Shown here piece after piece: positions 1 through 10,390 of a stretch of 64,000 nucleotides of DNA. The position numbers were made by a program, and so were the translations under genes. The stretch is from Bdellovibrio sp. KM01 (GTDB taxonomy: Bacteria > Bdellovibrionota > Bdellovibrionia > Bdellovibrionales > Bdellovibrionaceae): assembly GCF_013752535.1 (NCBI RefSeq), contig NZ_CP058348.1, forward strand, positions 124,001 to 188,000, given 5' to 3'. The notes under the pieces are model-generated. The model was not told the origin of the DNA, ran no database searches, and saw only the letters and a list, made by a program, of their open reading frames with translations. Position 1 is the first letter of the stretch. Each line of letters begins with the position of its first letter.

Positions 1-113
1 ACGAAGCTGGCTTTGATGCATATATCACCAAGCCGTTTACCAAAGAAAATTTATTGATGGTCGTTTCAAAAGTGCTACCGCAGGCGGGAGAATCAACTCA
101 TGGAAGAACTTAA
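1..113 (+). CDS. Response regulator receiver domain, C-terminal end (partial)
   Basis: The window opens inside a gene read from base 3 to the TAA at 111-113. The visible 36 residues include AYITKPFTKENLL, the typical end of a CheY-like receiver domain: the conserved Lys-Pro before helix 5. The phosphorylated Asp lies off the window. It ends shortly after the receiver fold, so it is either a single-domain regulator or a hybrid kinase ending in a receiver. It overlaps the next ORF by 14 bp, which suggests they are translated together. Family is clear; partner and output are unknown. Confidence 0.75.
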   Translation, partial: EAGFDAYITKPFTKENLLMVVSKVLPQAGESTHGRT

Positions 114-360
114 ATTTGTATTAAAGACTTTGGCATTCACGATGGTTTTGATTGTGCTTGCTCAGGTAAAAGTTGGTGGGGCTTCAATTGAATCCTACAC
201 ATTCCGCTGGTTGCAAAGGTCGACGGTGTCTCAGTATATTCAAAGTGCGGCTGCGGGTGGCGCGATGGCTTTAAAGAATCTGACAGTTCACGTAAAAGAT
301 GGCGTAGTTAGCACTGTCGATGGTTTCCAGGAAGGCTCTCACGAAAAGGCTGTTCGATAA
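100..360 (+). CDS. Small hypothetical protein with N-terminal hydrophobic segment
   Basis: An 86-residue protein of no family I recognise. Residues about 8-22 (LAFTMVLIVLAQV) form a hydrophobic stretch that could be a signal anchor; the rest is soluble with a small Ala/Gly patch (AAAGGAMA). The ATG lies inside the end of the response-regulator gene in another frame, so expression is probably coupled to it. The TAA at 358-360 directly abuts the stop codon of the convergent gene at 361-534. Coding status is supported by length and position only. Confidence 0.5.
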   Translation: MEELKFVLKTLAFTMVLIVLAQVKVGGASIESYTFRWLQRSTVSQYIQSAAAGGAMALKNLTVHVKDGVVSTVDGFQEGSHEKAVR

Positions 361-534
361 TTATCTAACGGCTTTTGTAGAAGCTACTTTTACAGATGCT
401 TGAGTTTTAGCGGCGATATTTGAAGATGTTGCTGCTGTGTTTTTGAAAAGACCGTTGTTAGAGCGTGGGCATGAACCGTAAGAAGTTGAAGACATTGCCA
501 AAGCTGCGATTACGATAAGTGTTGCTAGTTTCAT
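361..534 (-). CDS. Small secreted protein, 57 aa, sigma-54-driven
   Basis: Reading the minus strand from ATG at 534 gives 57 residues: a signal peptide (MKLATLIVIAALAMSSTSYG) followed by a short Ser/Thr/Ala/Lys-rich mature part with one Cys (SCPRSNNGLF). An AGGGG ribosome site lies about 5 bases upstream. The start is preceded by a good sigma-54 -24/-12 box at 570-585 and an enhancer-like palindrome at 646-658. Its style (signal peptide, one Cys, then low-complexity S/T/A/K) resembles the 782-991 gene. No known family; a role as an exported peptide or periplasmic factor is a guess. Confidence 0.65.
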   Translation of the reverse strand: MKLATLIVIAALAMSSTSYGSCPRSNNGLFKNTAATSSNIAAKTQASVKVASTKAVR

Positions 535-569
535 GTGATCCCCTTTGTTCGTTGGATACTTACATCTAA

Positions 570-585
570 TGCATCCGACATGCCA
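570..585 (-). promoter_or_regulatory. Sigma-54 -24/-12 promoter of the 361-534 gene
   Basis: On the minus strand the sequence is TGGCATGTCGGATGCA. GG and GC are separated by the required 12-base register, and the -24 TGGCA and -12 TGCA elements fit the RpoN consensus (TGGCAC-N5-TTGCW). Transcription would start near 559, giving a leader of about 25 bases containing the AGGGG site. Confidence 0.7.
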
Positions 586-722: not shown

Positions 723-759
723 GAGTGAACGACCTGGGGGGGGTGAAGGTCGCTCACTC
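723..759 (-). terminator. Hairpin downstream of the 782-991 gene
   Basis: Arms 723-735 and 747-759 pair over 13 positions with one mismatch (GAGTGAACGACCT against GAGTGAGCGACCT in reverse complement). The loop contains a run of eight G on the plus strand. It starts 22 bases past the stop codon of the minus-strand gene. The T tract is short, so it may be a terminator or a 3'-end stabiliser. Confidence 0.5.
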
Positions 760-781: not shown

Positions 782-991
782 TTAAGAACCTTGAATACCT
801 TTAACAGTTTTAGTTTTTGTTGAACCAGAAGATGAAGTGTTCTTGGCCGTCTTGTAGTCGGAAGCTGTTTTATCCATCATGCGACCTGCTAGCTTTTGAT
901 TGCATACTGGAGCTGCTGTGGATAGGGATGCATGGGATACGGAACCTGTAGCTACAACGGCTACCGCGATCATCAATGTAATAGCTTTCAT
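782..991 (-). CDS. Small secreted protein, 69 aa, sigma-54-driven
   Basis: A signal peptide (MKAITLMIAVAVVATGSVSHA) is followed by about 48 mature residues with one Cys (APVCNQKLAGRMMDK) and a Ser/Thr/Lys-rich tail. The ribosome site GGAGA is close to the ATG. A strong sigma-54 box lies at 1034-1049 and a hairpin follows the stop at 723-759, so this is a well-framed single-gene transcript. Family unknown. Its position next to the hit-like locus and its RpoN control suggest a regulated exported factor, but this is inference. Confidence 0.65.
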   Translation of the reverse strand: MKAITLMIAVAVVATGSVSHASLSTAAPVCNQKLAGRMMDKTASDYKTAKNTSSSGSTKTKTVKGIQGS

Positions 992-1033
992 ACTATCTCC
1001 TTTGAAGTGAAATAAGACTTCACAGGGGTGTAT

Positions 1034-1049
1034 TGCAGCGGGTGTGCCA
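1034..1049 (-). promoter_or_regulatory. Sigma-54 -24/-12 promoter of the 782-991 gene
   Basis: The minus strand reads TGGCACACCCGCTGCA, with a perfect -24 TGGCAC, a -12 TGCA and the correct 12-base GG-to-GC register. The start would fall near 1023, about 32 bases before the ATG. A degenerate dyad (TCTCG-GGC-TGGGA, 1059-1071) lies just upstream but too close for a classical enhancer. Confidence 0.75.
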
Positions 1050-1118
1050 GAATGCCTGTCTCGGGCTGGGATGTAATCTTTGTGATATCAATAGGTTAGG
1101 GATTCGAGGGGCGAAATA

Positions 1119-1148
1119 AAAAAGGCTCCCGTTTCAGAGAGCCTTTTT
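1119..1148 (-). terminator. Rho-independent terminator of the Tad/hit operon
   Basis: Perfect stem AAAAAGGCTC / GAGCCTTTTT with a 10-base loop. It lies 30 bases after the stop of the hit-like gene and would end the long minus-strand pilus transcript. It has T runs on both strands, so it could act in both directions. Confidence 0.85.
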
Positions 1149-1177
1149 AGGCGCTTCCATTGTTTAGGAAGTTAACA

Positions 1178-1450
1178 CTAATCGTTCAAGCCGCCTTGGC
1201 CTTTTGCAGGAGAAGCTTCCGAAGATCCAGCGCCTGCTTTTTGTAAAGGATTTGTGTTTTTAGTAAGAGGCACGTCTGTTACGTGCTTGTTAGCACAATT
1301 AACACAGCCTTCTTTGTTAAGGCCGCCAGTGGTTCCAGTTTTTTGATCTGGATAACCAATTTTTTCATTTGATTGATCACCGCTAACTGACTGCGCCTGA
1401 GCCGCCGTTACCATCAGAGTGCATACTGCCAATAACAATATTTTCTTCAT
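1178..1450 (-). CDS. hit: Hit-like (Bd0108-type) small secreted protein
   Basis: A 90-residue exported protein: signal peptide ending AQA at residue 19, then a Gly/Lys/Asn-rich mature part with a Cys pair at residues 49 and 52 (GCVNC). Its size, its secretion signal and its place after a YD-repeat gene at the end of a Flp/Tad operon match the host-interaction (hit) gene bd0108 of B. bacteriovorus. That protein acts with Bd0109 to link pilus extrusion state to prey-dependent versus prey-independent growth; mutations there are common in host-independent isolates. It starts 12 bases after the YD-repeat gene and is followed by a terminator. The assignment rests on context and remembered biology, not alignment. 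Confidence 0.65.
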   Translation of the reverse strand: MKKILLLAVCTLMVTAAQAQSVSGDQSNEKIGYPDQKTGTTGGLNKEGCVNCANKHVTDVPLTKNTNPLQKAGAGSSEASPAKGQGGLND

Positions 1451-1462
1451 AACGATCTCTCC

Positions 1463-3115
1463 CTAGAGATATAGCTCTGCAGTTGCAGGCGCGATAATGT
1501 CGAGCAAGTTATTGAATGTAGAGGCCACTTGCATTGCCACTGATGGACCTTCTTTACTGTCGACCTTGTTAATCTCACCATTCGATTTATATGAAACCTG
1601 AATAGTGCCCAAGCCCGGGCGAGTCACGATCGCTGGTTTACCATAGCGCTCTTCGTACTCGATCTTAACGACTTTCTTAGCCTGATCCGTGATGGTAGCA
1701 ATACGTCCACGATTATCATAAGTCATGGAGATTTTCTGACCATCAGAGTTCTGTGCATAGTTTAGGTTGCCTTTGCCATCGTATTTAAACTGAGTGGCTT
1801 TCGTCGTTACTTTTTGACCTTTTTGATTGAAGAAAGTAGTCGATACTTGGCTAACTTTTTTAATGGTCTGATCGTACTCAAAAGCCATACGTGTTGCTGG
1901 AGTGGCTTTTACTTTCACCAAACCATCTGTGTAGTATTCGTAAGAGATACGTTCAGCATTTCTGCGGATGCTTGTCGGTTTACCGAAAAGCTCGTGATAG
2001 CTGATATCTGTTACGTTGCCATTTACAGTCGTCATCACACGTTGCAAGAAGAACTGACCGTCTGCCCGCTGTTTGTGCCAAAATTCGTATTTGTTATCTG
2101 CAACAGTCTCTTTACCGCAAACTTTCTTAACTGTAGACCAGTAGTGATTTTGCGGGTCATTTTGAGAGAATTCGTACTTATAGGCCTCTGTACACTTATC
2201 ACGATCAGTAAATGAAGTTACCCAGTCGTTTTTTTTATCGTATTTAACGGCGATAAAAGTTTTATCCGGCCAAGAAGCTTTTGTCAGATTGTGAAGATCA
2301 TCGTATTCGTACGTGTAAGTCTTTTGCCAAGCATTTTTCACTGAAGACAAATCATCCAAATTCGCGAATTTATAATCCACATTCAAACCGTTCGGGCCTG
2401 TGATGGATTTAACTTTCTTGTTTTGGTAGTACTTGAATGACAGGCGACGACCGTTGTTATCTTCAACTTTCGTAACCAGGTCTTTATCGTATTCGAATTT
2501 CAAGAAGTTGCCGTTTTTATCGTAGATGTGAGTCAACTTACCTTGCGGGCTAAAACGTTGAGCGCTGCCGTCTGGAAGAGTGCGCGTATAATACGTTTTA
2601 TTGAAAGTAAAGTTCTCAACCTCACGACCGTTGGCAAAGAATTTTGTGCCTTCTTTAACTTGAACAGCCACGCCATATTTTTTTGCGAAATCCGCACGGG
2701 CATTGTCGTCTTCAAGCAACTGAGTTTTAAGAGAAGTCAGATACGCTTCAGTAACGCCGACTTTCTTTTCAGCCTTCATCTTAGTGATGATGGAGTTGAT
2801 GGTATTCTCAACATCTTTACGAGTGACTTCGCGCTGGGAGTAGGTAACTTCCATACCACCGCCGCACTCTTTAATTTTGATATTGCCTTCACCATTAACT
2901 TCCATGCTGGTTTCGAAATCAGAGCACCATCCGAAACCAAACATCCCGTTGAAAAGTGAACGGCTATTGTAAGTTCTGATAATTTTAAGATCGTAACCAG
3001 TGCCTGGTACGTCCATGTCTATCCACGTATTGGAATAGTTGGCATTCTTCATGTCGACAAGAGCATACGCTTGCGCCGAGAAAAGAACGGCCACTGCAAT
3101 AAGTGCCTTCTTCAT
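1463..3115 (-). CDS. Secreted YD/RHS-repeat protein (Bd0109-like)
   Basis: A 550-residue protein with signal peptide (MKKALIAVAVLFSAQAYA). An N-terminal RHS-associated module (IIRTYNSRS...FGFGWCSDFE, about residues 45-70) is followed by many YD repeats of the type G.L.Y.YD..G (for example LTHIYDKNGNFLKFEYD and MTYDNRGRIATI). There is no C-terminal toxin or core-associated domain, so it is short for an RHS protein and unlikely to deliver a toxin. It is predicted to be periplasmic or on the surface. It lies between the Tad membrane gene and the hit-like gene, as Bd0109 does, and probably binds the hit-like protein. RBS GAGG precedes the ATG. Confidence 0.7.
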   Translation of the reverse strand: MKKALIAVAVLFSAQAYALVDMKNANYSNTWIDMDVPGTGYDLKIIRTYNSRSLFNGMFGFGWCSDFETSMEVNGEGNIKIKECGGGMEVTYSQREVTRKDVENTINSIITKMKAEKKVGVTEAYLTSLKTQLLEDDNARADFAKKYGVAVQVKEGTKFFANGREVENFTFNKTYYTRTLPDGSAQRFSPQGKLTHIYDKNGNFLKFEYDKDLVTKVEDNNGRRLSFKYYQNKKVKSITGPNGLNVDYKFANLDDLSSVKNAWQKTYTYEYDDLHNLTKASWPDKTFIAVKYDKKNDWVTSFTDRDKCTEAYKYEFSQNDPQNHYWSTVKKVCGKETVADNKYEFWHKQRADGQFFLQRVMTTVNGNVTDISYHELFGKPTSIRRNAERISYEYYTDGLVKVKATPATRMAFEYDQTIKKVSQVSTTFFNQKGQKVTTKATQFKYDGKGNLNYAQNSDGQKISMTYDNRGRIATITDQAKKVVKIEYEERYGKPAIVTRPGLGTIQVSYKSNGEINKVDSKEGPSVAMQVASTFNNLLDIIAPATAELYL

Positions 3116-3147: not shown

Positions 3148-4047
3148 CTACACTTTGATAGTAACAAGTTTTTTGATAATGACACCACCGATAATTTGCA
3201 GAGCCAGCATCGCAAACAGCAACACTAGACCTAAGGTGGTACTAAACATGGGCTTGATAAAAGCGGGATCGATGACCAAAAAAACGATCATCAAAAAGAA
3301 TGGAATCAAAGTAACAATGATACCTTGCATGAGGCCTTGCGCTGTCATTGCCTGGATTTTTTTCTCGACCTTTTGTCTTTCACGAATCACTAGGACGATG
3401 GTCTGGAAAGTCTCTGCGAGATTACCACCAGTCTCTTTTAAAATGTTGATGGAGGTTACAAACATCTGCACATCGGGACGTGGGATGCGATTTCCCAAAT
3501 CATTTAGGGCGCTTTCAAAGCTGTCACCAACCTGCATTTGGTAAAGGACTTGCGAGAATTCCTGACTTATCGGATTCCCCATGATTTCAACCACACGTTT
3601 CATGGATTCTTGCGGATTCGAGCCGGCTTTAATACCGTTTGCCATGATCGTAATACCGTCAACCATCTGATCCACGAAACTTGTACAACGACGTTCATAC
3701 AACATGCGCACAATTAAAAGTGGCAGCTGCCAGCCTGCAATAGTTACAGAGGCACCAAAGAATGCGCCAACAAGAACGCTCGGCCAGAAGATTAAAAAGA
3801 CCAAGGCACCTAAGCCGAAACTCATCAGCAAGATAAGTATGGTAATTTTCTTTTGGTCTGCTTCCATGCCCATCAGGCGCATGATGCGAATAACTTCTTC
3901 ACGTTGACCCAGGCTGCGCTTATGAAGAAGCGCAATAGCCTTTTCGGCCCACAGAATGACCATGATAAAAACGATCGCCCCAAAGAGTGGGATTAAAACC
4001 CATTCTTTAGCCAGCAACGTTTTTAAGAAGGCCAAGACTGCTGTCAT
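3148..4047 (-). CDS. TadB/TadC-like inner-membrane pilus assembly protein
   Basis: 299 residues with a T2SF (type II secretion F) domain: membrane helices near the N-terminus and around residues 75-115, a cytoplasmic helical region (MVDGITIMANGIKAGSNPQESM, split here only by reading) and two C-terminal helices. It is the platform that the TadA ATPase works on. Tad systems normally encode two such proteins, TadB and TadC; only one is present in this operon. It lies 3 bases after the ATPase gene stop, so the two are co-translated. Confidence 0.85.
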   Translation of the reverse strand: MTAVLAFLKTLLAKEWVLIPLFGAIVFIMVILWAEKAIALLHKRSLGQREEVIRIMRLMGMEADQKKITILILLMSFGLGALVFLIFWPSVLVGAFFGASVTIAGWQLPLLIVRMLYERRCTSFVDQMVDGITIMANGIKAGSNPQESMKRVVEIMGNPISQEFSQVLYQMQVGDSFESALNDLGNRIPRPDVQMFVTSINILKETGGNLAETFQTIVLVIRERQKVEKKIQAMTAQGLMQGIIVTLIPFFLMIVFLVIDPAFIKPMFSTTLGLVLLFAMLALQIIGGVIIKKLVTIKV

Positions 4048-4050
4048 ACT

Positions 4051-6258
4051 TTATCCAACCTTTTTCGGTGGTACTACACCACCTGGCATTTTCGGCATCA
4101 ACCCCCCTTGTGCAGGAGGAGTAGGGCCTGTTGGTTTTGCTTGAGTTGCAGGGTCATTACTGAAAATTTCGCGTGGGATTACAACACCTTTATCACTCAA
4201 TTTTTGAATGAAGCTTGGGATTGTCCCTGTCGCCTGAAAGACACCTTGGATCTTACGATTTTTATCGTAACCAGTTTCTTTAAAGCGGAAGATTTCTGCT
4301 AAAGTGACAACGTCACCCTGCATGCCGGCTACTTCTGTGATGCTCATAATTTTACGGCTACCATCTGATTGACGGGAGATCTGTACGATCAAATTCACGG
4401 CACCCGCAATTTGTTCACGGATCGCACGCACGGGAAGATCCATACCGGCCATCATAGATAGAGTTTCCAAACGGGCAATACACTCGCGGGCACTGTTCGC
4501 ATGGGTTGTTGTCATCGAGCCATCATGACCTGTATTCATCGCTTGCAACATGTCCAAAGCGGCGCCGTCACGGCACTCACCGACGATGATGCGATCAGGA
4601 CGCATACGCAGGGCATTTTTGATCAAGTCACGGATATGAATGGCATTGTTACCTTCCATAGAAGCTGGGCGAGTCTCCAGACGAACCACGTGCTCTTGTT
4701 GCAATTGCAACTCGGCCGCGTCCTCGACTGTGATCACACGCTCGTTGGAAGGAATATATGAAGAAAGCATATTCAGCAGCGAGGTTTTACCGGAACCGGT
4801 ACCACCCGAGATCACCACGTTCAGACCGTTTTCCACGCAGATGCGCAGGAAGTCGATCATGTTCTTAGTGATACTTCCGTACTCAATATACTTTTCAGCG
4901 GTGATACCGCCTTTTTTAAATTTACGAATTGTCAGTGCGGGACCGTCAATAGAAAGAGGCTCGATCACCGCGTTCACACGGGAACCGTCTTTCAAGCGGG
5001 CATCCACGTAAGGAGTCGAATCATTAATCTGACGACCCAGGGGTGTCACGATACGCTCGATAATACGGCGTAAGTGATCATTGGAAGTAAATGTCACAGG
5101 ACTTAGTGCGACTTTACCGCTTTTTTCGACGAAGATTTTTTTATGACCGTTCACCATGATCTCGGTCACGGCCGGATCAGCCAGCAAGTCTTCCAAGGGA
5201 CCTAGTCCCAATGCTTCCTCTAAAACCTCTTTGATGATTTTAGAACGCTCGTCACGGGAAAGCTCAGGCGCTTCTTTGTCGACGATGACGGTGATTTCAC
5301 GCTTGGTCTTTTCACGAACTTCTTTTTCTTTGTTTTCGTCTTTGGTATCTGTCAGAAGCTTTTTTAGATCCACAGTGCGGATCAATTCATTGTGCACACG
5401 AATCTTCATCAGTGTGCGGGGGTCCATACCATTGGAGCCGGGAACTGGAGCGCTAGCGCCCTCGGAGGCAGCCGGTGTTGGTTTCGGACGGGACAGAGTT
5501 TTAAGTCTTTGCAGAACGCCACCCGTAAGCTTACGGGAAAGATCAAAGTACGAAGCTGTCAGTGGAGTTTTTGGCGCACTGATAACGAATGGCTGATATT
5601 TTTGTAAAGCCATATTAGTTGTCGCTTCGTCTTGAGGAATGATTCCCAAGAATGGCAATTGCAACTGATTGGAAATAGCTTGCGGAGACAAACCTGTTGG
5701 GGAGGCTTTGTTGACGACAAGCTGGAACATGTCTTTTGGGAATGTCGCTGACAACAACTCATTCACAAGTCTTTGTGTTTGAGTCACAACCAGAACTTCT
5801 GGAGTGGTCACGATCATAATAGCCGTGGCTTCCTGAAGAACGGCCATCTGTGCCGGGCCCAAGTCATTACCGACGTCAACAACCACAAATTTAAATGCAC
5901 GAGAGAAGAACTCCATGAGCTTGCCAAGCAGATCAGGAGAGATGTTTAAAGATTCTTCCGGTCCACGCACGGCGCCCACATAGCCCAAGCCAGAGGGATG
6001 CATCGTTACCAGTGTATTCATTGGTTGAGAATTCAAAGAGCCCGTGAATGTGGAAAGCTCTTTCAAGGTTTTTACAGGCTTCAGACCCATAATCACGTTT
6101 TGATCGCCGACGGATTTGGAATCAGCGTCGACAAGTAAAACCTGAGTACGCAGTTCAGTCATCAAGGCGCAGGCAAAGTTAGCAGCGAAGACGCTTTTAC
6201 CCACGCCCCCTTTACCACCAACAACAGCGATGAGATTACAATTCGGATTGATAGCCAA
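4051..6258 (-). CDS. Fused CpaE/TadZ-CpaF/TadA pilus ATPase
   Basis: 735 residues joining two normally separate Tad proteins. Residues 1-260 are a MinD/ParA-type ATPase with deviant Walker A GKGGVGKS (15-22), like CpaE/TadZ, which places the apparatus in the cell. After a Pro/Ala linker, residues about 300-700 form a CpaF/TadA secretion ATPase with Walker A GGTGSGKT near 487, an Asp box (TVEDAAELQL), Walker B (RIIVGECRDG near 555) and a His box (TTTHANS). The tail is Pro-rich. The frame is continuous with no sign of a frameshift. It powers Flp pilus assembly at the inner membrane. Confidence 0.9.
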   Translation of the reverse strand: MAINPNCNLIAVVGGKGGVGKSVFAANFACALMTELRTQVLLVDADSKSVGDQNVIMGLKPVKTLKELSTFTGSLNSQPMNTLVTMHPSGLGYVGAVRGPEESLNISPDLLGKLMEFFSRAFKFVVVDVGNDLGPAQMAVLQEATAIMIVTTPEVLVVTQTQRLVNELLSATFPKDMFQLVVNKASPTGLSPQAISNQLQLPFLGIIPQDEATTNMALQKYQPFVISAPKTPLTASYFDLSRKLTGGVLQRLKTLSRPKPTPAASEGASAPVPGSNGMDPRTLMKIRVHNELIRTVDLKKLLTDTKDENKEKEVREKTKREITVIVDKEAPELSRDERSKIIKEVLEEALGLGPLEDLLADPAVTEIMVNGHKKIFVEKSGKVALSPVTFTSNDHLRRIIERIVTPLGRQINDSTPYVDARLKDGSRVNAVIEPLSIDGPALTIRKFKKGGITAEKYIEYGSITKNMIDFLRICVENGLNVVISGGTGSGKTSLLNMLSSYIPSNERVITVEDAAELQLQQEHVVRLETRPASMEGNNAIHIRDLIKNALRMRPDRIIVGECRDGAALDMLQAMNTGHDGSMTTTHANSARECIARLETLSMMAGMDLPVRAIREQIAGAVNLIVQISRQSDGSRKIMSITEVAGMQGDVVTLAEIFRFKETGYDKNRKIQGVFQATGTIPSFIQKLSDKGVVIPREIFSNDPATQAKPTGPTPPAQGGLMPKMPGGVVPPKKVG

Positions 6259-6311: not shown

Positions 6312-7835
6312 TTAGTCGCGCAGACGGAATTTTTTCTTAATTTGTTCAGAGCCCGCACTTGCTGAGGTCTTAACAACTGGAGTTACGAAAACCACAAACT
6401 GACTTTGTTGTTTCGCGAATTCTTTGGATGCATACAAGCTGATGATAGGGTTCTTTTGTCCAGATGGACGGTTGTAACCAGTCGAGGAAGAGTTGCGGAT
6501 CAAACCACCCACCGCAGCACTTTGACGGTCGCGAACCACCACGGAGCTGGACATTTCATTCGAGCTCGTGATTGGTGCCCCGGCAGGAGTACTACCGATC
6601 ATGCTGGATACCTTAAAGGCCATATCCATACGAACGCTACCCGACTTTTCGCCCATCAGAACCGGAGTGATCGTTGTTACGATACCCACTTCGGCAAAGG
6701 CCGTACCTTGAGTGCCATTTTGCCCGATAACTGCGTAAGGCTGATTCGTTACTTGCTTAATTTCACCTTTTTTACCGTCTTCCACGATCATGCTTGTGCT
6801 TTCAAGAACACGAGCTTGACCATGTTGTTTCGCCCAGTTCAGTTTCGGCAACAAGTTTGAAACTGTACCTGTGATCGAGCTGACTACGCCACCAGCAGCC
6901 TCACCACCAGTTTGGAAAGTCATTTGCGAGTTATCACCAAGCTCTGGCGTGAACTGGAACTTAAAGTTCTTAGAGTAGTCTTTTTGCAATTCTACGTAGT
7001 GCACAACCAACTGAATCATCTTTGGAGGTGGCTTTGGTGCGGATTCTTTAATTTGAATCAGATTGATTACACCTTCATTGGCTGGATTACGAGTCTTGAT
7101 CAGACCTTTTTCCACAGCGGCTTCCACAATGCGGTCTGGAAGATAAGTTTTTGCGATGATCTCGGCACGAGCTGATTCGTCAGCACTGTTTGCCCAGCCT
7201 TGAAGAATGATTTTCTCGTTCACTGCGCGAACTTCGATTTCAGGGTTGTTGATGTCGCGGGCGATAAACTCAGCAATCTTCTTTTGAGCAAGGGGGCTTA
7301 AGCTCACGATCGAAGAAGCCTGGTTACCGAACTGGGAAACGACGTTGAAAATACGCGCCATATCTTTAGGGAGAAGAATCTGACCGTCAACTACGACTTT
7401 ATCATTCACGATTTTGATATTGATACCTTCGATGTCACCCAATAAAGAGCGCATCTCGCGAACGATTTTATCAAGTTTGGATTTTTTAACGTCAATACGG
7501 TATTCCGCCACGATTTTGCCGTTGCGTTTATCGTGGATAGTTAAAGTCGCAAAACCTTCAGTGCGGGGAGTGAAACGAATGACGTTAAGGTCTTTCGCAT
7601 AACTCGCAGTTACGATACGACGGAAGTCACCTTTGAATTCCACATTGTCTGGAATCGGAGGAAGTTTTTCGTCCAACTCAATTCCCAACGTCAAGTTGAT
7701 GAACTTGCGTGAACGGAAAGCTCCACTGCTGTCCTCGCCCGATGTTGACGGTGATGCAGAAAGATCGTCCTCTGCATGCGCAACCGGTACACAAAGACTG
7801 ACTACAAGCCCCATTGTAAGCAGCATATGTTTCAT
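6312..7835 (-). CDS. cpaC: CpaC/RcpA-type outer-membrane secretin
   Basis: 507 residues with signal peptide (ending AHA). The N-terminal part holds a pilus-secretin N domain and BON-like repeats (IEVRAVNEKIILQGWA is typical). The C-terminal half is the secretin domain, with VVRDRQSAAVGGLIRNSSS and a final strand-rich part (QFVVFVTPVV). It forms the outer-membrane pore for the Flp pilus. It sits between cpaB and the ATPase gene, the usual Tad order. Confidence 0.9.
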   Translation of the reverse strand: MKHMLLTMGLVVSLCVPVAHAEDDLSASPSTSGEDSSGAFRSRKFINLTLGIELDEKLPPIPDNVEFKGDFRRIVTASYAKDLNVIRFTPRTEGFATLTIHDKRNGKIVAEYRIDVKKSKLDKIVREMRSLLGDIEGINIKIVNDKVVVDGQILLPKDMARIFNVVSQFGNQASSIVSLSPLAQKKIAEFIARDINNPEIEVRAVNEKIILQGWANSADESARAEIIAKTYLPDRIVEAAVEKGLIKTRNPANEGVINLIQIKESAPKPPPKMIQLVVHYVELQKDYSKNFKFQFTPELGDNSQMTFQTGGEAAGGVVSSITGTVSNLLPKLNWAKQHGQARVLESTSMIVEDGKKGEIKQVTNQPYAVIGQNGTQGTAFAEVGIVTTITPVLMGEKSGSVRMDMAFKVSSMIGSTPAGAPITSSNEMSSSVVVRDRQSAAVGGLIRNSSSTGYNRPSGQKNPIISLYASKEFAKQQSQFVVFVTPVVKTSASAGSEQIKKKFRLRD

Positions 7836-7885: not shown

Positions 7886-8797
7886 CTACAAAGTCTTAAA
7901 CCCGTTTCGACGTTGCTGCGTCGGTTGTGGTGCTCGTTGCTGCATTGGCTGTATCATCTGCGGTCGCTGTTGTGGAATCATCACTGGAGGAGCTGCGGGA
8001 GCCGAATCCAGAGTTACCACCGGTTTGCCCAGGACCGAATCCGATGTCGAGCTTGGTGCTCTGACTGGGATTGTACGATCACTTGGGTTCCTAAGCGCAA
8101 AGAACAAATTTCCTGGCGCTGTAGATAAAATATAAAATAGATCCTGTGCTTCCTTCGGTGTCGCTTCTACTGTGATTGTCGTATATTTCGTATCACCAGT
8201 CAGTGCGATCTGATTCAAGTTCTTACCCGAAGAATCCAGTTCGAACATACGCGGAATGTTGTTCACAACACTTAAACCTGTTGCCAGAACTGGGACGTCA
8301 CTCATCAATGTAAACACTTCGCGACGTTGCGCCACACCTTTACCAGAATCCACGGCGGCATAGATATCTACGCGATCGCCAGGACGGATAAGTTTAGCGA
8401 CACCACGAATCTCATCCACCGGGATAGAAACGGCGCGCTTACTTGGTGCTACTTGCAACGAGATACCTGTATCCGGACCTGGTGTCAGAAGATTATTCTT
8501 CACAACCATTTGTCCTTTACGAATTGGTACCGCCGCTACGTTGCCGATGATTTCGTCTGGAATTGTGACAGCATCCGGTTGAATGAAATCGGCCGGCATA
8601 TCCTTTGTCTCTACCATTGTATCATAAATTGTCTGCATTTCAGCGATATCTTCTTTTGCGACAACAACACGTTTAGTGGAACCGAAGCGCTTGTCGTATT
8701 CGGCCTTTTTTTCCTGGGAATAGCTATAAAGCAGGAAGGTAGCGAATATACCCGCCGCAATCGAAAGCCATAAATTTCTAGTGTCGTTAGATCCCAT
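7886..8797 (-). CDS. cpaB: CpaB/RcpC-type pilus assembly protein (SAF domain)
   Basis: 303 residues from the ATG at 8797, chosen over an upstream start because GGAGAA precedes it and the N-terminal membrane anchor follows at once (NLWLSIAAGIFATFLLYSYS). A SAF domain follows (VVVAKEDIAEMQTIYDTMVE..., residues about 45-110) and then an RcpC/CpaB domain. The C-terminus is Pro/Gln-rich and low in complexity (residues 275-300). It is periplasmic and thought to modulate the secretin. Confidence 0.9.
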   Translation of the reverse strand: MGSNDTRNLWLSIAAGIFATFLLYSYSQEKKAEYDKRFGSTKRVVVAKEDIAEMQTIYDTMVETKDMPADFIQPDAVTIPDEIIGNVAAVPIRKGQMVVKNNLLTPGPDTGISLQVAPSKRAVSIPVDEIRGVAKLIRPGDRVDIYAAVDSGKGVAQRREVFTLMSDVPVLATGLSVVNNIPRMFELDSSGKNLNQIALTGDTKYTTITVEATPKEAQDLFYILSTAPGNLFFALRNPSDRTIPVRAPSSTSDSVLGKPVVTLDSAPAAPPVMIPQQRPQMIQPMQQRAPQPTQQRRNGFKTL

Positions 8798-8805
8798 ATA
8801 TTCTC

Positions 8806-9306
8806 CTACGCTCCACAAGCTGCATTCAGACAAATCCCATATTGAGACTTGAGCCAAATGGGGTTCACGCCAACTTTGTCGTTTCGTTCGTCATTAACAG
8901 TAGGTACTTTTTGATTATGTTCACTATCTGATCCAGCAGCTTCCACTTCCTTCTGAGATGACAACATATTGATGTTGATCGGGCGAGTGGTTGCATACCA
9001 GATATCCGAGCCTTTCGGTGATTTTTCCGAAGTGACACCGTGAATGCGAATACCTAATTTGTTATAGCTAAGCTGCGCATTTTCCTTGTCCGTGTTGTTA
9101 CGGAAATAAACCAGATTCGAGCGGTGTCTGAAAGTTTCAAACGCATAGTTACGAGAAGCAATGGAATTCAAAATACCGGAGTGAATAGCACCAAAGAATC
9201 CCAATGAAAAAGTAATGAACGTCACAATAACGAAAATCACCGGGATGACTTCGATCATCGCGGATCCTTTTTCATTGCTCAGGAGGTTGCGTTTGGATTT
9301 CAACAT
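8806..9306 (-). CDS. TadE-like pseudopilin
   Basis: 166 residues. The N-terminus carries a prepilin-type signal: NEKG then SAMIEV, giving Gly14 at the cleavage site and Glu at +5, followed by a hydrophobic helix (VIPVIFVIVTFITFSLGFFG). This is the TadE/TadF arrangement of minor pseudopilins in Flp systems. The rest is a polar periplasmic domain with no recognised motif. It overlaps the preceding gene by 7 bases. Confidence 0.75.
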   Translation of the reverse strand: MLKSKRNLLSNEKGSAMIEVIPVIFVIVTFITFSLGFFGAIHSGILNSIASRNYAFETFRHRSNLVYFRNNTDKENAQLSYNKLGIRIHGVTSEKSPKGSDIWYATTRPININMLSSQKEVEAAGSDSEHNQKVPTVNDERNDKVGVNPIWLKSQYGICLNAACGA

Positions 9307-9947: not shown

Positions 9948-10205
9948 TCAGTTCGGAGGTCGGTTGGTGATGCTGCGGTCTCTTTGGTTAGGGTGTTGTT
10001 GACGAGCTTCCTTAGCCGGAGCCCAAACACCACTTTCCATCATCCCTGCAACTCGTTCCCATGGACCCGAAACCAGTTTCGATAAAAATTTTGAATCACG
10101 AAGAGCGTTCATGCTGGCTACAAAAATTCCAACCATCACAATCATCAGCAAAACTGCTTCGATTACGAACTGGCCTTTCTGATTTCCCAGCGATGAGTTC
10201 TTCAT
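9948..10205 (-). CDS. Small pseudopilin-like protein of the Tad operon
   Basis: 85 residues from ATG 10205, which overlaps the TGA of the previous gene as ATGA; this start is preferred over one five codons upstream. QKG then QFVIEA gives a Gly11 cleavage site with Glu at +5, followed by a hydrophobic helix (VLLMIVMVGIFVASM). The remaining 45 residues are basic and end in RPPN. It is likely a minor pilin. Confidence 0.6.
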   Translation of the reverse strand: MKNSSLGNQKGQFVIEAVLLMIVMVGIFVASMNALRDSKFLSKLVSGPWERVAGMMESGVWAPAKEARQQHPNQRDRSITNRPPN

Positions 10206-10390
10206 TTCACTGCGCTCCACTCAAGACGGGCCCCATTTTCTTTGAAGCCTTGTCCTGTATCCAATTGCCTTTCCACACGGGCAGCCAATCGCGGACCTGA
10301 TCCACGAAATGCCTCAGAGGGGGCTGAAAGAAATGCTTTCAACCCGATCCCCAGAATTGCAATCATTAGCAGGACATACTCAATCGTCAT
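10202..10390 (-). CDS. Short pilin-like protein lacking a leader peptide
   Basis: 62 residues starting MTIEYVLLMIAILGIGLKAF. This is the mature N-terminus of a type IVb pilin (EY followed by a hydrophobic helix) but without the basic leader and Gly that a prepilin peptidase cuts. GGAG precedes the ATG at a good distance, and I see no upstream in-frame start that adds a leader. It lies between flp and the next pseudopilin gene, so it is very likely part of the pilus. Confidence 0.6.
   Translation of the reverse strand: MTIEYVLLMIAILGIGLKAFLSAPSEAFRGSGPRLAARVERQLDTGQGFKENGARLEWSAVK

What the first reader, a model, noticed from the sequence alone, without database searches (positions are those of the whole stretch)
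1178..3115. Host-interaction (hit) locus at the 3' end of a Tad operon
The order flp ... tadC, YD-repeat protein, small secreted Cys-pair protein, terminator matches the bd0108-bd0109 region of B. bacteriovorus, where lesions permit prey-independent growth. If correct, these two genes control the switch between predatory and free growth. I did not find an obvious pair of 10-bp direct repeats in the small gene like the one linked to deletions in the type strain.
Basis: partly seen in the sequence, partly recalled or inferred. Interest (0 to 1): 0.7.

Follow-up and report, generated by a model that had tools for sequence, protein, structure and literature searches.

The report
Bdellovibrio hit locus with hidden paralogues
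This is the locus of a predatory bacterium that helps decide between hunting and independent growth, and next to it lie small secreted-protein genes, related to the known switch protein, one of which is what an earlier study described as a non-coding regulatory RNA.

Summary
Bd0108 is so diverged that NCBI's Bd0108 model fails here (12.6 bits, cut-off 40). A profile comparison with shuffled controls and intermediate relatives rescues it. The 10-bp repeats behind the type-strain 42-bp deletion are absent here and were found only in HD100 and one close relative.
The larger result lies just outside the given coordinates. Two more small secreted-protein genes follow (782-991 and 361-534, both -). 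They share Bd0108's Cys...[LM]xxxT motif and each has a sigma54-type promoter. In HD100 the first sits at 96483-96683, inside the published 'non-coding hit sRNA' (96455-96716) that rises in bd0108 mutants. Substitutions there are overwhelmingly synonymous, so that transcript is most likely the mRNA of a Bd0108 paralogue. The 42-bp deletion removes the invariant Thr of this shared motif. A YD-repeat gene plus small secreted Cys protein(s) behind Tad genes occurs throughout the phylum. How the proteins act together remains inferred.

The parts
1463..3115 (-). Bd0109 orthologue: Sec signal peptide + DUF6531/RHS (YD) repeat beta-spiral, 550 aa, conserved C-terminal helix 524-548
   Evidence: 81% id to HD100; Pfam; AF2 pLDDT 88; best PDB match Rhs core Z 27.4 over 356 residues
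1178..1450 (-). Diverged Bd0108 (hit protein): signal peptide, CxxC (C49,C52), motif with invariant T66, Ser/Gly/Thr-rich tail
   Evidence: below NCBIfam NF053838 cut-off
1118..1149 (-). Intrinsic terminator ending the Tad-hit operon
   Evidence: hairpin AAAAAGGCTC...GAGCCTTTTTT, conserved across the genus
1031..1049 (-). sigma54-type -24/-12 element of the second small gene (TGGCACACCCGCTGCAATA)
   Evidence: 22 of 23 genus genomes, 0 of 2000 shuffles
782..991 (-). ORF2: Bd0108 paralogue, 69 aa, signal peptide, single Cys + MMDKT motif; counterpart of the HD100 'hit sRNA' region
723..759 (-). Hairpin downstream of ORF2 (probable terminator)
   Evidence: sequence GAGTGAGCGACC...GGTCGTTCACTC; similar hairpins after ORF2 in HD100, Tiberius, kdesi and G005
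567..585 (-). sigma54-type element of the third small gene (TGGCATGTCGGATGCATTA)
361..534 (-). ORF3: third small secreted paralogue, 57 aa (174 bp), Cys + LFKNT motif
   Evidence: profile score 25.4 against ORF2 family vs at most 12.9 in 100 shuffles
3148..4047 (-).
   Evidence: Pfam T2SSF E 7e-19
4051..6258 (-). CbiA/ParA + T2SSE fusion (TadZ-TadA-like; HD100 Bd0111 region)
   Evidence: Pfam
6312..7835 (-). Secretin (RcpA/CpaC-type)
   Evidence: Pfam Secretin E 2.5e-18, BON
7886..8857 (-). RcpC/CpaB
   Evidence: Pfam RcpC E 1.3e-18, SAF
10202..10390 (-). Flp2-like truncated pilin (starts MTIEY)
   Evidence: motif as described in PMC5430801
10418..10606 (-). Flp1 pilin (GQGATEY)
   Evidence: Pfam Flp1_like E 1e-9

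Best explanation
This is the hit locus of a non-type Bdellovibrio species (the chromosome length equals that listed for strain KM01). SHOWN here by sequence: (1) Bd0109 is a periplasmic/secreted RHS-fold beta-spiral encoded at the end of the Tad operon. (2) The next gene encodes a small exported, low-complexity Cys-pair protein homologous to Bd0108. (3) One or two further exported paralogues follow as separate transcription units with sigma54-type promoters. (4) In HD100 the first of these coincides with the published 'hit sRNA', so that transcript is most likely an mRNA. INFERRED mechanism: the Bd0109 shell is the fixed scaffold at the pilus or envelope, and the disordered small proteins are interchangeable low-affinity ligands that dock through the Cys...[LM]xxxT segment. 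Bd0108 is made with the Tad operon in attack phase. ORF2 is made on a sigma54 signal that rises when Bd0108 is lost, as the published 'sRNA' does. The balance of ligands on Bd0109 would set pilus extrusion and thereby bias predatory against independent growth. Losing the shared motif (42-bp deletion) or the whole protein breaks that read-out. Identity of the locus and coding status of ORF2: about 0.9. The two-ligand mechanism: about 0.3.
For: Bd0109 81% identical. Bd0108 homology by profile, 34.6 vs at most 16.7 in shuffles; C49, C52 and T66 invariant in 24 genomes. HD100 T78 (the same column) lies in the 73-86 deletion. HD100 ORF2 96483-96683, sigma54 element 96758-96740, predicted start about 96732, hairpin downstream, versus published sRNA 96455-96716. 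ORF2 substitutions: HD100/Tiberius 15 synonymous to 3 nonsynonymous (p 4e-8), HD100/G023 12:1, G009/G019 15:0. ORF2-Bd0108 homology 21.1 vs at most 9.7 in 200 shuffles. The sigma54 pattern has one match in the whole HD100 genome, at this promoter; rpoN is present in the window's genome. Published: Bd0108 binds Bd0109, is disordered, and the 'sRNA' rises in bd0108 mutants.
Against: No translation or protein evidence for ORF2 was available. The RNA-seq strand of the published sRNA is not stated in the text read, and its reported 5' end (96716) lies 16 nt inside the predicted start. NCBI's Bd0108 equivalog model rejects the window protein at its cut-off. AF2 of a Bd0109-Bd0108 read-through fusion placed the small part nowhere (pLDDT below 30), so docking is unsupported. 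ORF2 has one Cys, not a pair. Whether sigma54 drives it is consensus matching only.
Confidence: 0.8

Rival explanations
1. The YD protein plus small Cys proteins are a general Tad-pilus accessory of the phylum (assembly, length or tip control). The predatory/independent growth switch in HD100 is an indirect consequence, so in this species the genes need not control lifestyle at all.
For: Bd0109 homologues in 59 of 60 class genomes and 64 of 78 phylum genomes; tadC upstream in 81 of 82 loci, small exported Cys ORFs downstream in 76 of 82. In HD100, bd0109 could not be deleted in any growth mode.
Against: Lifestyles of most sampled genomes are unknown. In HD100, bd0108 lesions account for many independent-growth isolates and wild-type bd0108 suppresses axenic growth.
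Confidence: 0.45
2. The ORF2 transcript is a regulatory RNA, or dual-function RNA, acting by base pairing as originally proposed; the ORF is secondary.
For: Original authors' reading; short monocistronic transcript with strong terminal hairpin.
Against: Strongly synonymous substitution pattern in several independent pairs; Shine-Dalgarno-like AAGGAG before ORF2 starts; conserved signal peptide, Cys and Thr motif while nucleotide sequence diverges; RefSeq already carries a hypothetical gene BD_RS00505 at this place.
Confidence: 0.15
3. The window's small gene is not Bd0108 but an unrelated small secreted gene in the same slot, as reported for SKB1291214 ('Bd0108 not conserved', plus a horizontally acquired 174-bp insert).
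For: Pairwise E 1.4 to HD100 Bd0108; NF053838 12.6 bits against cut-off 40; published claim.
Against: Profile test with shuffle control, aligned CxxC...LxxxT block; the close relative G011 passes NF053838 at 107 bits and the SKB-size genome reaches 35 bits at the same place; the 174-bp 'insert' has the length and position of ORF3 (57 aa), present with its sigma54-type element in six genomes.
Confidence: 0.06
4. Rhs toxin with a small downstream immunity protein.
For: RHS fold close to T6SS Rhs effector cores; small gene immediately downstream.
Against: No variable C-terminal toxin domain: the protein ends in a conserved helix and conserved C-terminus; both products carry signal peptides; the small protein is far less conserved than its partner; bd0109 could not be deleted, whereas bd0108 could, in HD100.
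Confidence: 0.03

Closest known systems
hit locus bd0108-bd0109 of B. bacteriovorus HD100 (PMC3818213, PMC4267844)
   Same: Same gene order at the Tad operon 3' end, 81% identical Bd0109, exported CxxC small protein, downstream small gene (HD100 'hit sRNA' region).
   Different: Bd0108 reduced to motif-level similarity; no 10-bp repeats; a third small gene (ORF3) not found in HD100.
Hit-locus 'non-coding sRNA' of HD100, bases 96455-96716 (PMC3818213)
   Same: Occupies the same place as ORF2 (96483-96683) between bd0108 and bd0103.
   Different: Here read as the mRNA of a 66-aa exported Bd0108 paralogue with a sigma54-type promoter.
NCBIfam NF053838 hit_Bd0108
   Same: Matches the whole window small protein weakly (1-86 on 1-91 of 94).
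   Different: 12.6 bits, under the 40-bit equivalog cut-off.
RHS/YD-repeat shells (T6SS Rhs effector cores, Tc B-C subunits, teneurins)
   Same: Beta-spiral fold, Z up to 27.4 over 356 residues with a T6SS Rhs core.
   Different: About half the size of the roughly 1000-residue T6SS Rhs cores in the matches, no C-terminal toxin part, signal peptide, Tad-operon context.
SKB1291214 hit region (PMC5941755)
   Same: Same layout in the genome of matching size: diverged Bd0108, ORF2, 174-bp ORF3.
   Different: The paper reports Bd0108 as not conserved and the 174 bp as a presumptive foreign insertion.

Membership tests
hit locus (bd0108-bd0109) | Bd0109 orthologue: exported YD/RHS protein, full-length similarity | tested here: met
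   81% identity over 550 aa
hit locus (bd0108-bd0109) | At the 3' end of a flp/Tad operon, then terminator | tested here: met
hit locus (bd0108-bd0109) | Small exported CxxC protein homologous to Bd0108 | tested here: met
   Profile score 34.6 vs at most 16.7 in shuffles; invariant C, C, T, G
NCBIfam NF053838 (Bd0108 equivalog) | Score at or above the curated 40 bits | tested here: not met
   12.6 bits; 21 of 24 genus genomes pass, not the window's genome, G012 or G022
hit locus of the type strain | 10-bp direct repeats 42 bp apart in bd0108 | tested here: not met
   Pair found in HD100 and G023 only; a type-strain feature, not defining for the locus
hit locus (bd0108-bd0109) | Lesions give prey-independent growth | not testable with these tools
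   Needs isolates of this species
RHS/YD-repeat superfamily | RHS repeats and beta-spiral fold | tested here: met
   Pfam, AF2, PDB comparison
Rhs toxin effector | Variable C-terminal toxin domain | tested here: not met
   Conserved C-terminus; model ends in a helix
sigma54-dependent promoter (ORF2, ORF3) | GG-N10-GC with TGGCA...TGCA context upstream of the gene | tested here: met
sigma54-dependent promoter (ORF2, ORF3) | Transcription depends on RpoN | not testable with these tools
   rpoN gene present in the genome
Bd0108-like small secreted family (ORF2) | Protein-coding, exported, shared Cys...[LM]xxxT motif | tested here: met
   export from sequence only

The most novel reading that the evidence does not exclude
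The published hit-locus regulatory sRNA is the sigma54-driven mRNA of a secreted Bd0108 paralogue. Bd0108 and this paralogue are alternative disordered ligands of the Bd0109 beta-shell, so the predatory/independent growth decision is read out as a ligand balance on a pilus-linked scaffold. The scaffold plus tandem small secreted proteins is a phylum-wide Tad accessory module.
Probability: 0.3. Interest if true: 0.75.

Novelty: new variant of a known kind. Interest (0 to 1): 0.5.

Why it matters
The hit locus is the classic entry point to how Bdellovibrio chooses between predation and independent growth, and a base-pairing sRNA has been part of the model since 2013. If the transcript is an mRNA for a Bd0108 paralogue, mutant phenotypes should be re-read: bd0108 mutants make more of a possibly competing relative. 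The comparison also names the part of the disordered Bd0108 that is conserved (CxxC and the [LM]xxxT segment that the 42-bp deletion removes). It offers an explanation for a reported 'absence' of Bd0108 and a 'foreign insert' in SKB1291214. And it widens a gene called unique to Bdellovibrio to a Tad-linked module found across the phylum.

Tried and rejected
Pairwise BLASTP of the window small protein with HD100 Bd0108: E 1.4, mostly signal peptide; a leave-clade-out HMM ranked it first of 417 window ORFs but only at E 0.077; replaced by profile-profile with shuffles. AF2 of a TAG-read-through Bd0109-Bd0108 fusion as a stand-in for the complex: small part below pLDDT 30, no docking. Rfam on the locus: nothing above threshold. 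The published suggestion of a pilin-like N-terminus in Bd0109 is not supported: that segment is part of the RHS beta-spiral. The diverged second YD copies checked in G018 and G035 had no comparable small partner. Annotated bacterial records other than E. coli were not searchable, so RefSeq's BD_RS00505 was equated with ORF2 from the paper's description only. Literature searches found no paper naming ORF2 as a Bd0108 paralogue, but only an open-access library was searched.

Full report
OBSERVATION. The 550-aa protein has a signal peptide, DUF6531 and RHS repeats. Upstream on the same strand run a T2SSF protein, a CbiA/ParA-T2SSE fusion, a secretin, RcpC and two flp-type genes. The 90-aa protein has a signal peptide, CxxC and a Ser/Gly/Thr-rich tail. 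A hairpin with a T-run follows at about 1118-1149.

IDENTITY. Among whole-genome relatives, G006 has the HD100 chromosome length (3,782,950), and all ten hit-locus primer sequences tested match it exactly. Lengths also suggest G002 Tiberius, G012 ZAP7, G005 NC01, G022 SKB1291214, G018 LBG001, G013 W, G023 SSB218315, G025 JSS, and KM01 for the window's own genome. These names are inferences from size, except kdesi, which is named in a fetched record of the same length. Bd0109 is 81% identical between window and HD100.

The small protein is the hard case. BLASTP to HD100 Bd0108 gives E 1.4, and NCBI's Bd0108 equivalog model gives 12.6 bits against a 40-bit cut-off. That model passes in 21 of 24 genus genomes and fails in the window's genome, G012 and G022. 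The close relative G011 passes at 107 bits. A mature-part profile of the window clade (G000, G012, G022, G011) against the other Bd0108 proteins scores 34.6, with at most 16.7 in 200 column shuffles, aligning CVNCANKHVTDVPLTKNTNP with CPECIARMKHGRLGDNTTYR. I therefore call it a diverged Bd0108, outside NCBI's equivalog definition. Invariant in 24 genomes: the two Cys, one Thr, and Gly near the Cys and at the C-terminus.

DIRECT REPEATS. The 10-bp pair CAAAGGCTCC, 42 bp apart, is in HD100 and G023 only; the published deletion removes residues 73-86, RRHDDTVSREIKGS. That segment contains the invariant Thr (T78 in HD100). The deletion hot spot is thus a lineage peculiarity that happens to remove a conserved segment.

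NEIGHBOURING SMALL GENES. About 470 nt after the Bd0109 stop a second exported small protein (ORF2, 782-991) is encoded; its profile finds one at the hit locus in 24 of 24 genus genomes. It is coding: HD100/Tiberius 15 synonymous to 3 nonsynonymous differences (p 4e-8), HD100/G023 12:1, G009/G019 15:0. Its mature profile matches Bd0108's at 21.1, with at most 9.7 in 200 shuffles and 5.0 reversed. In HD100 it is at 96483-96683, with a -24/-12 element at 96740-96758 (predicted start about 96732) and a strong hairpin downstream. Capeness et al. placed a 261-bp non-coding RNA, raised in all bd0108 mutants, at 96455-96716. The match in position and length makes that transcript most likely the ORF2 mRNA. 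A RefSeq hypothetical gene (BD_RS00505) has been mentioned at this place, so the ORF itself is not new; its kinship to Bd0108 and its identity with the sRNA were not found in the papers searched.

A third gene (ORF3, 361-534, 57 aa, 174 bp) occurs in six of the genomes, is related to ORF2 (25.4 vs at most 12.9 in shuffles), and has its own sigma54-type element. Its length and position fit the '174-bp insertion' reported for SKB1291214, where Bd0108 was called not conserved; in the genome of that size both are family members.

PROMOTERS. TGGCA-N7-TGCA[AT] lies 57-86 nt before ORF2 in 22 of 23 genus genomes examined and in none of 2000 shuffles. A stricter 19-base version has one match in all of HD100 (this promoter) and three in the window's genome, two of them here. 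A sigma54 gene is present in the window's genome. Activity is inferred.

STRUCTURE. AF2 of Bd0109 with 41 relatives (pLDDT 88) is a beta-spiral with a short helical insertion (99-146) and a C-terminal helix. It matches T6SS Rhs cores at Z up to 27.4 over 356 residues, residues 18-464. The published pilin-like N-terminus is part of this spiral. The small protein stays unplaced and low-confidence in a read-through fusion model, in line with published disorder.

DISTRIBUTION. Bd0109 homologues: 59 of 60 class genomes, 64 of 78 phylum genomes. In 82 loci, tadC lies upstream in 81 and a small exported Cys ORF downstream in 76; controls 12 and 11. G025 has a second, 38%-identical YD gene with its own CxxC partner 12 nt downstream. 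Bd0108-type genes are therefore not confined to Bdellovibrio, although homology of the most distant small proteins rests on position and architecture, not on significant sequence similarity.

MECHANISM. Published: Bd0108 binds Bd0109, loss of Bd0108 reduces pili, the 42-bp deletion lengthens them, and bd0109 could not be deleted. Added here: a paralogue under separate control that rises when Bd0108 is lost, if the sRNA is its mRNA. I infer that paralogues compete for, or take turns on, the Bd0109 scaffold through the shared Cys...[LM]xxxT segment, tuning pilus output. The scaffold-ligand balance model is a proposal (about 0.3); a general Tad accessory role with indirect lifestyle effects is the main rival.

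VERDICT. The added value is the re-reading of the hit sRNA as a Bd0108 paralogue mRNA and the phylum-wide module.

Noticed in passing
HD100 (G006) genome-wide; ORF2 promoters, e.g. G006:C1:96767-96781: Palindrome GTCTCA-N3-TGAGAC occurs 25 times in HD100 (reversed-pattern control 0), 21 in Tiberius, 20 in kdesi; sites lie mostly between genes, some form terminator stems. Unknown regulator site or repeat element.
   Followed up: partly
L059 (G013, size of strain W), small gene after Bd0109: bd0108 is broken by a one-base frameshift. Could be a natural host-independent-type lesion or a sequencing error; the assembly is flagged as possibly incomplete in PMC11656739.
   Followed up: partly
L067 and L115 (G025, size of P. 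exovorus JSS): The Bd0108-position protein has lost both cysteines, while a second YD gene elsewhere carries a CxxC small partner. JSS is an epibiotic predator.
   Followed up: partly
L183-L188 and places listed: About a dozen genus genomes carry a further ORF2-like small gene away from the hit locus (E about 1e-6 to 1e-11), in the inspected loci close to a gene for an EamA-like membrane protein; no sigma54 element of the strict form there.
   Followed up: partly
window 4051-6258 (-): 735-aa gene fusing a ParA/MinD-like (TadZ-type) N-terminus to a TadA-type T2SSE ATPase.
   Followed up: no
L137 (G116), L144 (G110), L140 (G132): Some more distant relatives in the phylum carry two or three tandem small exported Cys genes after the YD gene, in G116 including a nearly identical pair.
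   Followed up: partly
window 100-360 (+) and upstream (L041:1721-2113): An 86-aa ORF in the place of Bd0103 and a CheY-like receiver protein converge on the small genes.
   Followed up: no
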